Positions 30,886-42,495 of a stretch of 64,000 nucleotides of DNA are shown here, in pieces (position 1 is the stretch's first letter; each line of letters opens with the position of its first letter). The stretch is taken from IMG/VR virus record IMGVR_UViG_3300020477_000013, positions 1 through 64,000 of that record. One strand, 5' to 3'. Origin of the DNA: a virus. The position numbers and the translations under genes are program-made. The notes beneath the pieces were generated by a model. That model searched no databases and was not told the origin of the DNA. It saw only the letters and a list, made by a program, of their open reading frames with translations.

Positions 30886-31308
30886 ATGAGCAAGATATCA
30901 AAATCAAAGCTAAAGACGCTGATTAAAGAATGCTTAGTAGAAATTTTAACTGAGTCTACCCACATACCACAGCCTTCTCAAAATCGGTCTTCCAGGTCAT
31001 CTACTTCGCCCCAAAGGAAAGAGAGACCTAGGCCGCGACCCACTGCAATGGATAATATAAGGTTTGAAAACAACGTTAATTCGACCGTAAACCAGATAAC
31101 TAGTGATCCAATGATGGCATCAATTTTTGCAGACACGGCTGTGACAACGTTACAGGAACAATTAGAGGCTGATTCCAGAGGTCCGTCTACCTCAATGCCC
31201 CTAGATTCAGTTTCACTCATGGTTGACCAAGCTGATCCGATGGATCTATTTGCAGATGTTGCAGATAATTGGGCAACTCTAGCATTTGATGACAAGAAAT
31301 CTCCTTAA
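30886..31308 (+). CDS. Hypothetical head-region protein (140 aa)
   Basis: Unrecognised. It opens with a short amphipathic helix (KLKTLIKECLVEILTE, residues 8-23), followed by a Ser/Pro/Arg-rich disordered segment (residues 25-55) and a mildly acidic C-terminal half. Similar short helices at the start of phage head proteins often act as core-targeting or interaction peptides, so an internal or prohead-core role is possible. It begins five bases after the protease stop. Confidence 0.5.
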   Translation: MSKISKSKLKTLIKECLVEILTESTHIPQPSQNRSSRSSTSPQRKERPRPRPTAMDNIRFENNVNSTVNQITSDPMMASIFADTAVTTLQEQLEADSRGPSTSMPLDSVSLMVDQADPMDLFADVADNWATLAFDDKKSP

Positions 31309-35706: not shown

Positions 35707-37638
35707 ATGGCTAAGAATTTTTCACTAAATCAATTGACGGAGGGCATTCGCCAGCGCCACCTCGGTGCTCAGAACCGTCGTCTCGTTGATAAGTGGTCCC
35801 GTACCGGTCTTCTTCGTGGTTTGGATGGCGTTTCTAGAGAGAACATGTCCAGGCTTCTTGAGAATCAGGCTGGCCAGGTCCTTCGCGAGGCAAATTCACT
35901 TTCAACTGGTGGAGGAAACGTTTCGTCTTCCGGAGACCTTCGAGGCTTTAGCAATATTGCTTTCCCCCTCGTTCGTCGCGTTTTCGGCGGGCTCGTTGCG
36001 AATGAGCTAGTCTCCATCCAGCCAATGAGCCTTCCTTCCGGACTGCTCTTCTACTTGGATTACACATATGGCACCCAGGTTGGCGGCGGCGGCGGCCCCG
36101 GTAATAACAGTGCGGCATACATGTCGGGTACATCCATTTATAACCAGCCCGTTGGTAAGGGCGTAAGGTCAGGTTCACTGGGTATCGGTGGACAGTATAA
36201 CCTTGCTGGTTCGGGTTACTCACGTGTTAACGTAAGCACCGCAAAGGCCCTAGGTTATGGTGCCCTACACGCTTCTGGTGCCTACCAGGGCAACTCTTCG
36301 CTCCAGACGAACAGCAACGATGGTGTCTTCATGCACGCTACAGGTACTGATGGAAAGAACCTCCAGTTCGATCCACAGCTTGTTAATCTCATTGAAGATA
36401 CTCCGGCTGCAATTAATTCTGGTGCTACTTACTTGACGGTTGTTCTTAAGACAGCTGACATGACAGGTTCCGGAGACCAGAAGGGTGATCTTACACTTGC
36501 TAAGGAGTTTGCACTCTACGCGACTAATACAGAGACACTCCCGAATGGTCTTGCAACGATAAGCACCTCTGGTGCTAACGCTGTACAGTCTGGCCAGAAT
36601 CTTTTCAATGTTAGAAGGCTCACACAGGTTGGTGAGTGGGATGGCACAAGCTTTACCCCGAACCCACTTGTTGATAGGGACGCCTCAAATGGCGCTGTTC
36701 TTCTTATTTGCTCTGGTAACGGTCATGACACTTCCGACATGGACAGGGTTAGCCTTAGCTTCCCCCTTGATCCGGTCTTAAGCGCTGGTAGCGATGCTGA
36801 CAGCTTGACAATTCCGACATTTGAGTCTAACTTTGGCACTGATCCTTCTCCGGAGATTCCTGAGATTGATATTAAGGTTGAGTCAATTGCTGTTACCGCC
36901 GTTACACGTAAGTTACGTGCTCGCTGGTCACCAGAATTGGCACAGGATCTCAATGCTTACCACAGCCTTGACGCCGAGGTGGAGCTAACCCAGATTCTTT
37001 CTGAGCAAATTGCTCTAGAGATTGATAGGGAGATCTTGAATGACCTTCTTACCCAGGCAGCAACGACCCGTTACTGGTCACGCGCACCTGGTAAGTTTGT
37101 CAATCGTGAGACTGGTGCTGAGGTCAGCAAGTCTGATTCTCTTGCTCCTGGACCTGCTTTCACCGGTACGGTTCGAGAGTGGTATGAGACTCTTGTCGAG
37201 ACAGTCATTGATGTTGCCAATGAGATTCACAGGTTAACGCTTCGTGGGTCGGCTAACTTCGTTGTGGTTTCACCTGATGTTGCTACTATCCTCGAGGCCT
37301 CGGTCCTTTACAGGCCTGCTTACACCCTCGATGGTGATGGCCAGGTTGGTTCACCGTTCTCACTTGGTGCTGAGAAGGTTGGTACTCTTAGCAACCGCTT
37401 CACAGTCTACAAGGACCCTTACTTCCCACGGAACAAGGTCCTCGTTGGATACAAGGGCGGAAGCTATCTTGAGACTGGCTATGTCTATGCCCCGTATGTA
37501 CCCCTGATTGTTACTCCGACGATCTTTGCTCCTGAGGATTTCACCCCGCGTAAGGGTGTTATGACTCGCTACGGAAAGAAGATGGTTCGCAGCGACTTCT
37601 ATGGTACTGTTACGGTACTTGACCTCAACATCATCTAA
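35707..37638 (+). CDS. Major capsid protein, gp23-like (643 aa)
   Basis: The sequence shows the T4 gp23 layout: a helical, charged N-terminal delta region, then FSNIAFPLVRRVFGGLVANE and VSIQPMSLPSGLLFYLDYTYG, the conserved start of the HK97-fold domain, and a C-terminal VYKDPYFPRNKVLVGYKGGS segment ending in TVTVLDLNII. A candidate processing site is LRE/A at residues 59-62, near the T4 cleavage position (Glu65). It is longer than T4 gp23 (521 aa). Codon use differs from most neighbours: CGT/CGC for Arg, and C- or T-ending codons typical of highly expressed genes. TTTAAGGAG gives a strong ribosome binding site, and a strong terminator follows. Confidence 0.95.
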   Translation: MAKNFSLNQLTEGIRQRHLGAQNRRLVDKWSRTGLLRGLDGVSRENMSRLLENQAGQVLREANSLSTGGGNVSSSGDLRGFSNIAFPLVRRVFGGLVANELVSIQPMSLPSGLLFYLDYTYGTQVGGGGGPGNNSAAYMSGTSIYNQPVGKGVRSGSLGIGGQYNLAGSGYSRVNVSTAKALGYGALHASGAYQGNSSLQTNSNDGVFMHATGTDGKNLQFDPQLVNLIEDTPAAINSGATYLTVVLKTADMTGSGDQKGDLTLAKEFALYATNTETLPNGLATISTSGANAVQSGQNLFNVRRLTQVGEWDGTSFTPNPLVDRDASNGAVLLICSGNGHDTSDMDRVSLSFPLDPVLSAGSDADSLTIPTFESNFGTDPSPEIPEIDIKVESIAVTAVTRKLRARWSPELAQDLNAYHSLDAEVELTQILSEQIALEIDREILNDLLTQAATTRYWSRAPGKFVNRETGAEVSKSDSLAPGPAFTGTVREWYETLVETVIDVANEIHRLTLRGSANFVVVSPDVATILEASVLYRPAYTLDGDGQVGSPFSLGAEKVGTLSNRFTVYKDPYFPRNKVLVGYKGGSYLETGYVYAPYVPLIVTPTIFAPEDFTPRKGVMTRYGKKMVRSDFYGTVTVLDLNII

Positions 37639-37760: not shown

Positions 37761-38078
37761 ATGCCATCATCTGTGAGAAAGTCTACTAAAGAGAAAGCAG
37801 CCTTAAAAAAGTCCGTTACACCAAAGAGTGTTAGTACTCCAAAGAAGTCGGCAACAAAGAAGGCGGTCACTAGAAAAAAAGCACCTGTGGCTCCACCACA
37901 ATCAACTCCAACAAAGACTACCAGCGCTAATAATACAACAGCTGCTTTAGAGAAAAGAATTGAGGTTCTTGAATCGAGGCTTACAACGCTTGTAAATGCT
38001 CTTCATACTGAGTTTAAGAGAGATATGAGAAAAGGCCCTCGAGGGGTTGCTAAGAGTATCGAGTCACTGCTCTCGTAA
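37761..38078 (+). CDS. Lys-rich coiled-coil protein, possibly DNA-binding (105 aa)
   Basis: The first 60 residues are a Lys/Ser/Thr/Pro/Ala-rich tail (KKSVTPKSVSTPKKSATKK) like histone H1 or bacterial Lys-rich nucleoid proteins. Residues 62-100 form a coiled coil with heptad leucines (LEKRIEVLESRLTTLVNAL). It begins MPSSVRKS; the FtsZ-like protein at 40065 begins MPSTVRRS, a noticeable shared start. Position after the capsid terminator and a possible promoter suggests separate expression. It may bind DNA or nucleoprotein, for example as an internal head protein; this is inference from composition. Confidence 0.6.
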   Translation: MPSSVRKSTKEKAALKKSVTPKSVSTPKKSATKKAVTRKKAPVAPPQSTPTKTTSANNTTAALEKRIEVLESRLTTLVNALHTEFKRDMRKGPRGVAKSIESLLS

Positions 38079-39127: not shown

Positions 39128-39520
39128 ATGCCAAAAGTAGCCTATACAACAAAAAAGGGCCTCGTTCAATCAGGCGGTGGTGGATTCGTTAACGGATATT
39201 TCCAATCAGGTGGTAGTACTACATCAGCTGCCGATTCACTCGCGATTCCCGTAACCCACAGTGTGGTGGCAAAAACAACAGGCGGCGATGCTGAGACCCT
39301 AACACTAGCAAACGGCCAACCCGGACAAGTGTTAACCATTTATATTGCAACAGATGGTGGGGGCGACGGAACGCTGTCTGCGACCACGATGACCGGCTGG
39401 GCGACCATAGTTTTTGCTGACGCCGGTGATCGCGCAGTTCTTCAATATATCGATGATACTATCGGATGGATTATCCTTGGCCTTTCTGGTGTTGCTGGCC
39501 CTCCAGTAACAACTGTATAA
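39128..39520 (+). CDS. Small beta-rich virion-type protein, paralogue A (130 aa)
   Basis: Begins MPKVAYTTKKGLVQS and is Gly/Thr/Ser-rich, with a C-terminal beta domain ending TIGWIILGLSGVAGPP. The next gene is a paralogue: same start, same GQ-PGQVL strand, and a nearly identical GDRAVLQYIDDTIGWIIL block. The same fold appears to close the partial fibre at 1-1620 (GQMKVII, then a Trp strand). Such domains are common on phage fibres and decoration proteins. AAGGAGAAAGATT gives a strong ribosome binding site. Placement after capsid genes suggests a surface protein of the virion; function is not proven. Confidence 0.6.
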   Translation: MPKVAYTTKKGLVQSGGGGFVNGYFQSGGSTTSAADSLAIPVTHSVVAKTTGGDAETLTLANGQPGQVLTIYIATDGGGDGTLSATTMTGWATIVFADAGDRAVLQYIDDTIGWIILGLSGVAGPPVTTV

Positions 39521-39539
39521 TAGATAAGGGAGAAAGATC

Positions 39540-39920
39540 ATGCCAAAAATGACCTATACGACCTCGAAAGGTCTAGTTCAATCAAGGGGCTCCGGCGCTC
39601 AAAATTTGTACTACATGAATCCAGGAAGCACAACAGGCTCAGGTGCTGGTGCAGTTCCAATCACACATGCATATGTTGCGATGACAGCCGGTGGAACCGT
39701 TGCCTGGACTATTGCCGATGGACTTCCTGGCCAGGTCCTACAAATTTACTCAGTAGATGCAAATACGGGAACACTTACACCCGACACCTCAACAGGTTGG
39801 GCAACGATCGTGTTTACCGACATCGGTGATCGCGCAGTTCTTCAATATATTGATGATACTATCGGGTGGATAATTCTGAGCCTTAGTGGCGTCTCGGCGC
39901 CACCGACTTCAACAGTTTAA
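39540..39920 (+). CDS. Small beta-rich virion-type protein, paralogue B (126 aa)
   Basis: A tandem paralogue of the preceding gene (start MPKMTYTTSKGLVQS). The blocks around 39425-39480 and 39826-39880 share an exact run of more than 25 bases and encode almost the same residues, whereas the middle of the proteins has diverged; this indicates recent duplication or gene conversion of the C-terminal block. The upstream GGGAGAAAGATC is a close copy of the ribosome binding region of paralogue A. A strong terminator follows. Confidence 0.6.
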   Translation: MPKMTYTTSKGLVQSRGSGAQNLYYMNPGSTTGSGAGAVPITHAYVAMTAGGTVAWTIADGLPGQVLQIYSVDANTGTLTPDTSTGWATIVFTDIGDRAVLQYIDDTIGWIILSLSGVSAPPTSTV

Positions 39921-39944
39921 TATTCGTTGTCTGATGTCCTTAAT

Positions 39945-39976
39945 AGTCCCCTTCCTTCTGGTTGGGGGCTTTTTTT
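39945..39976 (+). terminator. Intrinsic terminator after paralogue pair
   Basis: Stem AGTCCCC with GGGGGCT (one G-T pair), a 12-base loop and a run of seven T. Confidence 0.85.
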
Positions 39977-40025
39977 ATTCTTTGCTTGTTATGGTAATTC
40001 ATCATTTTTACTTTAAGAATCGTAT

Positions 40026-40042
40026 ACGTACAATAATTATAG
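40026..40042 (+). promoter_or_regulatory. Possible promoter upstream of FtsZ-like gene
   Basis: ACGTACAATAA at 40026-40036 is identical to a sequence at 27418-27428 upstream of the portal gene. Both lie 28-31 bases before an ATG in an AT-rich gap. TACAAT resembles a -10 box; no clear -35. Confidence 0.35.
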
Positions 40043-40064
40043 CATAACATAAGTGAGATAGAAG

Positions 40065-41231
40065 ATGCCATCTACTGTTAGAAGATCATTGGGGAAAAAA
40101 CCTCCCGAAAAGAAATCTCACAAAAAAGATGAAATAGGAAAGGTTGATATGGTACCTGAGAATGAAAAAGATGATGTATACATCAATACTGATGTTGCTG
40201 GTGACGATTTTGATTTTGTAGAAGCGTATGATGATGATCCTGCTGAGCTTGATGAGAGATTGCTGCCTGATAATACTGCACCTAGCGCAATTTCATGTGG
40301 ATTTCTTGGTATTGGAGGGGGCGGCGGAAAACTCGCCAAGGCATTTATTGACCTAGGCTTTAATAAGACGCTGCTCGTAAATACAACGGCAAAAGACCAA
40401 CCAGGTGGAGTGGATCCCCAGCATTTCTTGCTGGTACCCGGTGCGGATGGGGTAGGTAAGGACATCGAACTTGGCAAGAAGGTCTTAGGTGAACAAAGCG
40501 CTATGGTAGAAGATGCTGTGCGTACCAGGATAGGGACCGTAGATTGGCTCTTTGTCTTGGCCGGCGGCGGGGGCGGCACCGGTAGCGCATGTCATGAGTT
40601 GCATGGTTCCCTGAGTAGATACCTTCAATCCATAGAGTCAGTTGGGAAAGTCGTATATATCGTTACAAAGCCAACTGCTCAAGAGTTGTTAAACCCAACA
40701 ATCTCTAAGAATTATAGCTCGCTGTCTAAGGATGTGGCTGATCACCCTCATATCATCATAGATAATGAGAAACAGCTACAGTTGCTCAGGGGAAAGGTGG
40801 GAATGCTAAATATGTTCCCATCTGCAAATAAGAATTTTGCAAAACTACTATGGCAGGTGCTAAAGCTAGCTTCTGAGCATTCCCCCGTACAGACTTTCGA
40901 CTCTAAGGATTTAGAGCGATGTCTTTCCTGTGATGGCAGGATCGTGTTAGGGAGTACTGTCGTTAGGGATGTAGATAGGAATGACCTAGGATCAATAGTA
41001 TTTCAGGGATGTTTACGATCATCTCCATGCCCTACGCCCAAGGGTTCTACAAAGACTGGTGTTTTACTTCTAGTCGTGGATAATGATATGGCTTCTGACC
41101 CCGACGTCAGCCGCCGTCTAGAATCTGCATTTTCATATGTTGGCGGCCGGGCGGAGACATTATTTTCTGGTGTTTATGTTAAGGAAGGTATACCTGGGCT
41201 AATCGCCATAACCATGCTGGGCGGGTTGTAA
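40065..41231 (+). CDS. FtsZ/tubulin-family GTPase (388 aa)
   Basis: The core carries the defining elements of the family in order: an N-terminal nucleotide loop (GFLGIGGGGGKLAKAF, residues 79-94), the tubulin/FtsZ signature GGGGGTGSA (167-175), a II-DNEKQLQLL segment matching the FtsZ I-PN-x-LL strand, the central helix (FPSANKNFAKLLWQ), and a T7 synergy loop FDSKD (Asp279, Asp282) equivalent to the FtsZ D-F-A-D catalytic pair, followed by GRIVLGSTVV. The protein ends with the last strand of the globular domain (LIAITMLGGL), so it lacks the FtsZ C-terminal linker and FtsA/ZipA-binding peptide. It adds a basic then acidic 70-residue N-terminal extension. It resembles FtsZ more than PhuZ of nucleus-forming phages. 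Likely forms filaments; role in infection unknown. Confidence 0.85.
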   Translation: MPSTVRRSLGKKPPEKKSHKKDEIGKVDMVPENEKDDVYINTDVAGDDFDFVEAYDDDPAELDERLLPDNTAPSAISCGFLGIGGGGGKLAKAFIDLGFNKTLLVNTTAKDQPGGVDPQHFLLVPGADGVGKDIELGKKVLGEQSAMVEDAVRTRIGTVDWLFVLAGGGGGTGSACHELHGSLSRYLQSIESVGKVVYIVTKPTAQELLNPTISKNYSSLSKDVADHPHIIIDNEKQLQLLRGKVGMLNMFPSANKNFAKLLWQVLKLASEHSPVQTFDSKDLERCLSCDGRIVLGSTVVRDVDRNDLGSIVFQGCLRSSPCPTPKGSTKTGVLLLVVDNDMASDPDVSRRLESAFSYVGGRAETLFSGVYVKEGIPGLIAITMLGGL

Positions 41232-41262
41232 GTTATAAAACTATCATATGCACGTCTCGGTT

Positions 41263-41271
41263 GATATTTAT
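41263..41271 (+). promoter_or_regulatory. GATATTTAT motif upstream of gp13-like gene
   Basis: Lies 27 bases before the ATG. Candidate late promoter of the neck-sheath-tube unit. Confidence 0.3.
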
Positions 41272-41298
41272 TAAGATAGATCAACTGGAGATGTATGC

Positions 41299-42495
41299 AT
41301 GGCTACCTTCGCTAATACGCTAAACCCAACTCCCTTCGGCTTTTTCGATAGCGACTCAGGCTTTCAGACAGAGGCTGATGCGATGGTGACGTTTGTAAAG
41401 CGTAAGCTTGGTGATGACATCCTATCTGTTGAACTTACAAAAAAACAGATATGGGCGTGTTTCGAGGAGTCTTTTCTAGAATACGGCTCAGTTGTTAACC
41501 AGTACCAGGCTCAATCGCAACTAATGAATTTATTGGGATTCCCTACAGGTAGTGCTTTATCAGGGTCAACGAATATTGGACCTCACGGATATGAGCAAAT
41601 GCTGGGCAGAGAAAATTTTGAATTTATCTTGAGGCAAGCTGAGCCATATGCAATGGACGCCGGACTAGGGGGATCGTACAATACGGTTACCGGTTCAATC
41701 AGCTTAGAGAAAGAAAAGCAGGATTACGATATCTACACAGACCTTAAGGATGCAGATGGTAATCTCATATTTGACAATGCAAAGAATTCTCCAAAGACAA
41801 AATTGAAAATAATGGAAGTCTTCCATTTCTCAGGTCAGGCCGCCTATCGGTTCTTTGATACAACATCGGCAATTAATTATCTAAATAATGAATTCGATTT
41901 TGAGTCGTTTACTCCGGAGACTGTTTTCTATGTGTTACCGGTATTTGAGGATATCTTAAGGGCCGGGCAAATGGATTTATCAAATCGTGTTAGACGATCA
42001 AATTATTCATATCGTATATCAGGTACGAAGATAAGGATATTTCCTGAGCCTACTAAAGAAGACCCAAAAAAGTTATGGATTAGGGTGGCGTTTAATCCGG
42101 ACCCATTTAATCCTGATTATCAAGATGACACAATTTATGGCGTGAGTAATCTATCGAACGTTCCATATGGAAATCTTCAATTCAATAGGGTTAACAGTAT
42201 TGCACGTCAATGGGTGAGGCAATACACGTTGTCTGCCTGTAAAGAATTATTGGGATATATAAGATCTAAGTTTGATTCTGTCCCTATCGCTGACACGACA
42301 CTGAGCCTTAACGGCGGAGATCTAGTATCCCAAGGAAGAGAAGAGAAAACAAATTTAAAGACTGAACTTAAAGAGATGCTTGATACAATGACGTATGGAA
42401 AGCTCATTGCAGCTGAGGCAGAAGAGGTTGAGTCAATGCAGCGTATCCTTAGGAATATCCCAATTCCTAATGGTAAAGCTATTATAATGGGATAG
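41299..42495 (+). CDS. Neck protein, gp13-like (398 aa)
   Basis: The opening domain (EADAMVTFVKRKLGDDILSVELTKKQ then CFEESFLEYGSVV) is the helical pattern of gp13/head-completion connectors that bind beneath the portal. Order neck-neck-sheath completion-sheath-tube matches T4 genes 13, 14, 15, 18, 19. The middle contains VFYVLPVFEDILRAGQMDL and a YRISGTKIRIFPEPT beta hairpin. It is longer than T4 gp13 (309 aa). An ATATTTAT motif (41264-41271) and ACTGGAGATG precede the start. Assignment depends on domain style and gene order together. Confidence 0.7.
   Translation: MATFANTLNPTPFGFFDSDSGFQTEADAMVTFVKRKLGDDILSVELTKKQIWACFEESFLEYGSVVNQYQAQSQLMNLLGFPTGSALSGSTNIGPHGYEQMLGRENFEFILRQAEPYAMDAGLGGSYNTVTGSISLEKEKQDYDIYTDLKDADGNLIFDNAKNSPKTKLKIMEVFHFSGQAAYRFFDTTSAINYLNNEFDFESFTPETVFYVLPVFEDILRAGQMDLSNRVRRSNYSYRISGTKIRIFPEPTKEDPKKLWIRVAFNPDPFNPDYQDDTIYGVSNLSNVPYGNLQFNRVNSIARQWVRQYTLSACKELLGYIRSKFDSVPIADTTLSLNGGDLVSQGREEKTNLKTELKEMLDTMTYGKLIAAEAEEVESMQRILRNIPIPNGKAIIMG

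What the first reader, a model, noticed from the sequence alone, without database searches (positions are those of the whole stretch)
40065..41231. FtsZ-like GTPase in the accessory island of a T4-like phage
The protein has the nucleotide loop, the GGGGGTGS signature and the catalytic Asp pair (D279, D282) of a polymerising FtsZ, yet ends exactly at the globular domain and so lacks the membrane-tether peptide. It also has a 70-residue charged N-terminal extension. Known phage tubulins (PhuZ) belong to nucleus-forming phages; this one sits in a T4-type structural cluster between capsid and neck genes, with its own terminator upstream and a possible promoter. It may position heads or tails, block host division by co-polymerising with host FtsZ, or organise the replication centre. 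This is the best candidate for an undescribed system here.
Basis: partly seen in the sequence, partly recalled or inferred. Interest (0 to 1): 0.9.

Follow-up and report, generated by a model that had tools for sequence, protein, structure and literature searches.

The report
Phage tubulin with an N-terminal tail
The gene encodes a phage-made tubulin-like GTPase, closer to the plasmid-moving protein TubZ than to the cell-division protein FtsZ, that recurs in scores of uncultured T4-type phages outside the nucleus-forming group and carries its flexible tail at the opposite end from its known relatives.

Summary
In detail: 40065-41231 (+) encodes a 388-aa tubulin/FtsZ-fold GTPase (called TUB here), alone of its kind in the 201.6-kb phage record. 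It is not an FtsZ proper. Profile comparison and a tree place it on the TubZ/PhuZ side, nearest plasmid TubZ, on its own long branch. No relative was found in cultured phages or plasmids beyond 26% identity, but at least 182 relatives lie in IMG/VR contigs. All 66 distinct proteins compared keep both T7-loop aspartates, and the other nucleotide-site motifs are invariant or nearly so. All lack the C-terminal tail of FtsZ, TubZ and PhuZ; nearly all carry a disordered, acidic N-terminal tail with a conserved [DE]F[DG]F motif. The gene is accessory: in 17 of 65 distinct relatives it lies between capsid and neck genes, in 22 within 75 nt downstream of a phage tmRNA gene, and some related phages have an empty capsid-neck site or no TUB. 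Most likely it makes GTP-driven filaments that position phage DNA or heads, with the N-tail replacing the C-tail as polymer or cargo contact. That function is inferred. Rating: new variant of a known kind (phage tubulins), with a clean set of experiments available.

The parts
40065..41231 (+). Phage tubulin-like GTPase (TUB), 388 aa as first annotated
40149..41231 (+). Alternative start at Met29 with Shine-Dalgarno-like AGGAAAGG upstream; same two-start pattern in most relatives
40065..40262 (+). N-terminal tail, residues 1-66, mostly disordered in the model (1-61 pLDDT<50); acidic, with motif DDFDFVEAYDD at residues 47-57
40314..40331 (+). T1 nucleotide loop, GGGGGK (residues 84-89), invariant in 66/66
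40563..40586 (+). T4 tubulin signature GGGGGTGS (residues 167-174); GGGTGS invariant in 66/66
40896..40913 (+). T7 catalytic loop FDSKDL (residues 278-283); D279 and D282 invariant in 66/66
39951..39968 (+). Terminator-like hairpin upstream of TUB (number in region not above shuffles)
35707..37638 (+). T4-type major capsid protein, upstream side of the variable slot
   Evidence: phrog_138, 3e-71
41299..42495 (+). Head-tail adaptor (neck) gene, downstream side of the variable slot
   Evidence: phrog_211, 7.7e-11

Best explanation
TUB is a phage-encoded cytomotive tubulin of the TubZ/PhuZ side of the superfamily. Shown by sequence and modelling: tubulin fold, conserved GTP pocket, conserved T7 aspartate pair that in tubulins completes the GTPase site of the next subunit, strong purifying selection, and replacement of the usual C-terminal tail by a conserved acidic N-terminal tail. 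Inferred: it polymerises head to tail with GTP in infected cells, and the dynamic filaments position or move phage cargo (replicating DNA or filling heads) for efficient assembly, as PhuZ does, but without a phage nucleus; the N-tail motif does the job of the missing C-tail, contacting the neighbouring subunit or recruiting cargo.
For: Fold and confidence. TubZ-side placement by profile comparison and ML tree (100% split from cellular FtsZ). Invariant nucleotide and T7 residues across 66 distinct proteins. dN/dS about 0.01-0.06 where dS is not saturated. N-tail enriched in acidic residues with conserved motif, C-tail absent in all. In TubZ and PhuZ the C-tail is both a polymer contact and a partner-binding site (PMC5322520, PMC3678025), so a tail relocated to the other terminus is a sensible functional replacement. 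Retained at several genomic locations, which suggests a self-contained function rather than dependence on head genes.
Against: No experiment shows polymerisation or localisation. No cargo, adaptor or centromere identified. T7 loop lacks the FtsZ Asn (T/S/A at 277). C-tail truncations of TubZ lose GTPase activity (PMC5322520), so a natural tail-less form may behave differently. The cargo role is by analogy only.
Confidence: 0.45

Rival explanations
1. TubZ-like DNA partition: TUB filaments segregate a plasmid-like or pseudolysogenic phage genome through a DNA-binding adaptor and a centromere.
For: Nearest family is TubZ; phage TubZ partition is known from phage c-st (PMC7950403).
Against: No iterons around the gene, no TubR-like neighbour recognised in the window, and the TubR-binding C-tail is absent. 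The genome looks like a T4-type virion builder. A sigma-region-4 protein sits beside TUB only in one context.
Confidence: 0.12
2. Host division inhibitor: TUB disturbs the host Z-ring, by decoy binding of FtsZ or its partners, to keep the cell large.
For: Same fold as FtsZ; accessory, lineage-patchy distribution fits a host-takeover gene.
Against: About 20% identity to FtsZ in structure matches, no FtsZ C-terminal peptide, and its own T7 loop and active site are maintained as for self-assembly.
Confidence: 0.15
3. Virion morphogenesis factor: TUB organises head or neck assembly, as its place between capsid and neck genes suggests.
For: Location in G000 and 17 other distinct loci.
Against: About three quarters of distinct relatives have it elsewhere; close capsid relatives have MCP and neck genes with no TUB between, and several large related contigs lack TUB.
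Confidence: 0.1
4. Non-polymerising GTPase that reuses the fold, for example as a GTP sensor or a regulator of ribosome rescue linked to the adjacent tmRNA.
For: Frequent tmRNA adjacency in relatives; unusual tails.
Against: T7 aspartates act across a subunit interface in known tubulins and are fully conserved; G000 has no tmRNA; a tRNA gene can take the same place, so the adjacency may be an insertion hot spot.
Confidence: 0.1

Closest known systems
Plasmid/phage TubZ (type III partition; incl. Bacillus phage G gp138)
   Same: Best profile match (E=1.7e-24), T2/T3/T6/T7 loop sequences alike, tree neighbourhood
   Different: No C-tail, no tubR/tubC found, acidic N-tail, T4-type phage genome, separate long branch
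PhuZ of nucleus-forming phages (Chimalliviridae)
   Same: Phage-encoded tubulin, T7 aspartates, acidic flexible tail
   Different: Weak profile match (E=1.6e-5); tail at the other end; no shell-protein or phage RNA polymerase relative found with phiKZ queries (low sensitivity)
Bacterial FtsZ
   Same: Fold and GTP pocket; single-sequence best hits
   Different: 24.8 bits against a 295-bit cut-off; T7 motif differs; no linker or C-terminal peptide
FtsZ-like protein of an uncultured Caudovirales phage (A0A6J5RW92)
   Same: Best viral fold match, E=3.2e-21
   Different: 19% identity, 452 aa; not the same family by sequence

Membership tests
Tubulin/FtsZ superfamily | Tubulin fold with G-box GGGTG[ST] and T7 acidic residues | tested here: met
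FtsZ | Score above TIGR00065 equivalog cut-off (295.2 bits) | tested here: not met
   24.8 bits
FtsZ | C-terminal linker and conserved tether peptide | tested here: not met
   0-6 residues beyond residue 388 in 66 proteins
TubZ | Sequence placement with TubZ | tested here: inconclusive
   Best profile match, but own branch; grouping with RepX-type TubZ has 89% support at very long branches
TubZ | Flexible C-tail binding TubR/TubY | tested here: not met
   role of tail from PMC5322520
TubZ | Adjacent centromere iterons and TubR gene | tested here: not met
   no iterons 39300-41500; no TubR-like neighbour recognised; distant sites not excluded
PhuZ | Clear homology to phiKZ-type PhuZ | tested here: not met
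   hhalign 56% probability, E=1.6e-5
PhuZ | Belongs to a nucleus-forming phage (chimallin present) | tested here: inconclusive
   no phmmer match of phiKZ shell protein or RNAP beta in G000; insensitive
FtsZl-type (Pfam Tubulin_2) families | Match to their Pfam models | tested here: not met
   only PF00091 reported at E<=10
Polymerising cytomotive GTPase | GTP-dependent filaments | not testable with these tools
   needs purified protein

The most novel reading that the evidence does not exclude
A separate family of phage tubulins, outside nucleus-forming phages, builds a spindle- or track-like cytoskeleton in which an N-terminal acidic tail replaces the C-terminal tail used by TubZ and PhuZ filaments, and phages carry it as a movable module tied to their own tmRNA gene or to the capsid-neck slot.
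Probability: 0.35. Interest if true: 0.8.

Novelty: new variant of a known kind. Interest (0 to 1): 0.62.

Why it matters
Phage cytoskeletons of the tubulin kind are known almost only from nucleus-forming phages and plasmid-like prophages. A conserved tubulin in T4-type phages would ask whether intracellular positioning by filaments is a general phage strategy and not tied to the phage nucleus. The swap of the tail from one end to the other is a natural experiment on what tubulin tails do. The protein is of ordinary size and can be made from the sequence, so polymerisation is directly testable.

Tried and rejected
FtsZ membership and PhuZ membership rejected. A head-assembly role inferred from location was set aside after finding the other locations and empty sites. 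TubRC partition: no iterons. T4 late promoter TATAAATA is not enriched in the window (2 against 4.9 expected). phiKZ shell protein and RNA polymerase queries found nothing in G000. Literature searches for a phage FtsZ/tubulin with tmRNA or in uncultured phages found no description of this family. Host: the GTDB matches are three short contigs in two Flavobacteriales bins, suggestive only; binning error not excluded. Structure search ranks CetZ/FtsZ first by E-value while profiles rank TubZ first; profiles were trusted more because the fold scores of the three families are close together. CetZ and eukaryotic tubulin were not in the tree, since no sequences could be fetched. pXO1 and phage c-st TubZ were not fetched as yardsticks because of what those records carry; Priestia, Pontibacillus, Planococcus and Lysinibacillus TubZ were used instead.

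Full report
What is there. The 388-codon ORF at 40065-41231 (+) is intact. phmmer finds FtsZ structures at E=1.5e-8. Pfam Tubulin matches at 6e-5, below its cut-off, and the FtsZ equivalog model gives 24.8 bits against a 295-bit cut-off. AlphaFold2 with 15 relatives gives mean pLDDT 82.7, pTM 0.79, with residues 1-61 disordered. Foldseek finds CetZ, FtsZ and TubZ at 1e-16 to 1e-18; among viral models the best is an FtsZ-like protein of an uncultured phage at 19% identity. It is the only tubulin-family gene found in the 201,585-bp record.

Start codon. Most relatives have an in-frame M[APG]S[ST] start followed some 20-60 codons later by an ATG with a good Shine-Dalgarno; the window has this ATG at residue 29. 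Substitutions in the tail still favour third codon positions in most pairs, so the extension is probably translated, but the main start is undecided.

Relatives. tblastn of 50,697 phage records finds only phage G gp138 at 25.6% and no plasmid. IMG/VR holds at least 182 relatives, the fetched ones down to about 60% identity; GTDB genomes hold three short contigs in two Flavobacteriales bins. Across 66 distinct proteins the T1 loop GGGGGK, the NTT.KD of T2, GGGTGS, the NE[KR]Q of T6 and the T7 FD..D are invariant or nearly so. dN/dS is about 0.01-0.06 where measurable.

Placement. hhalign of the TUB profile gives TubZ 1.7e-24, RepX-type TubZ 8e-17, FtsZ 1.8e-13, PhuZ 1.6e-5. An ML tree separates TubZ, PhuZ and TUB from the cellular FtsZs with 100% support and puts TUB on its own long branch next to RepX-type TubZ at 89%; such branches are long and the sister relation is provisional. 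The reference sets are small.

Tails. FtsZ, TubZ and PhuZ all carry C-terminal tails. In TubZ the tail is needed for filament dynamics and binds TubR and TubY (PMC5322520); in PhuZ its acidic knuckle is needed for polymerisation (PMC3678025). TUB ends 0-6 residues after the last strand in all members. Instead it has an N-tail, median 60 residues, 28% acidic and 10% basic, with a motif [DE]F[DG]F..YDD; 60 of 66 match the strict pattern and five of the other six carry a near form, the sixth being a truncated sequence. In the rest of G000 only one other ORF has a loosely similar string.

Location. In the window TUB lies between MCP (phrog_138, 3e-71) and a head-tail adaptor (phrog_211, 7.7e-11). 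Across relatives there are at least four contexts. MCP-neck loci fall in several separate parts of the TUB tree, so the gene has moved or been exchanged repeatedly. In G006 MCP and neck are adjacent, and in G015 the homologues of 38123 and 38670 abut the neck gene with no TUB, while TUB is elsewhere in those phages. Of 15 MCP relatives with contigs of 47-257 kb, only one has TUB, so it is accessory, though the contigs may be incomplete.

tmRNA link. Of 48 distinct relatives outside the MCP-neck slot, 22 have a phage tmRNA gene ending within 75 nt upstream on the same strand and 35 within 1.6 kb; none of 17 in the MCP-neck slot does. G000 has none. In L035 and L091 a tRNA gene lies directly before TUB, 72-77 nt away. 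Either the pair is functional or tRNA-like genes are an insertion hot spot; the data do not decide. Phage tmRNAs as such are known (PMC9004378).

How it most likely works. Shown: fold, active-site conservation, selection, tail anatomy, mobility. Inferred: GTP-driven filaments with the T7 loop of one subunit completing the GTPase site of the next, and positioning of phage cargo. Not shown: polymerisation, cargo, timing. A phage nucleus is not indicated: the phiKZ shell and RNA polymerase queries found nothing (insensitive), and the head and tail genes are T4-type. A published survey links jumbo-phage tubulins with multisubunit RNA polymerases and the nucleus (PMC7824862), which makes this lineage unusual.

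Verdict. A real, conserved and apparently undescribed lineage of phage tubulin. It works most likely like TubZ/PhuZ but fails membership tests for FtsZ and PhuZ and fails the tail and partition features of TubZ. It is a new variant of a known kind.

Noticed in passing
L094-L100 (G000 66.9-195 kb), e.g. G000 82419-89460 and 146524-161168; also window 30886-31308: At least 45 ORFs share a CTS-like N-terminus (MKITKRQLRRIIKEE... or MKLLREYIRSLL...), one close to the prohead protease gene; 24 of 45 have an [LI]xE site within 12 residues after it against 30 of 217 other ORFs (p=5e-8). This looks like a T4 internal-protein-type capsid-targeting and protease-cleavage signal, which would mean dozens of ejected proteins. 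Shuffled sequences give a mean of 0.02 such ORFs; no paper found with the string.
   Followed up: partly
L003, L007, L008, L013, L016-L018, L036, L037, L052-L055, L058, L061, L062, L064-L066, L068, L073, L077-L079, L088: Phage-encoded tmRNA gene directly upstream of the tubulin gene (2-73 nt), tags such as ANDNVEFDYALAA.
   Followed up: yes
L017:9149-9427 (-) and equivalents in 19 loci: Small protein with Cys/His cluster and sigma-70 region 4, convergent with the tubulin gene in one genomic context.
   Followed up: partly
G000 126582-133150 (L097): Phage-encoded GroEL-like chaperonin, sigma-70 factor and DnaK close together; peptide deformylase-like ORF at 130525 by eye.
   Followed up: partly
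window 39128-39920: Two tandem paralogous ORFs (130 and 126 aa) just upstream, 76% identical over 131 nt of DNA; homologues at the same place in L070 and L086.
   Followed up: no
window 37761-38078: 105-aa Lys-rich protein after the capsid gene starts MPSSVRKS, like the tubulin's MPSTVRRS; the only two such N-termini in G000.
   Followed up: no
L102/L114 (G013) and L103/L115 (G012): Tandem duplicate major capsid genes, about 70% identical to the window MCP, in two relatives.
   Followed up: no
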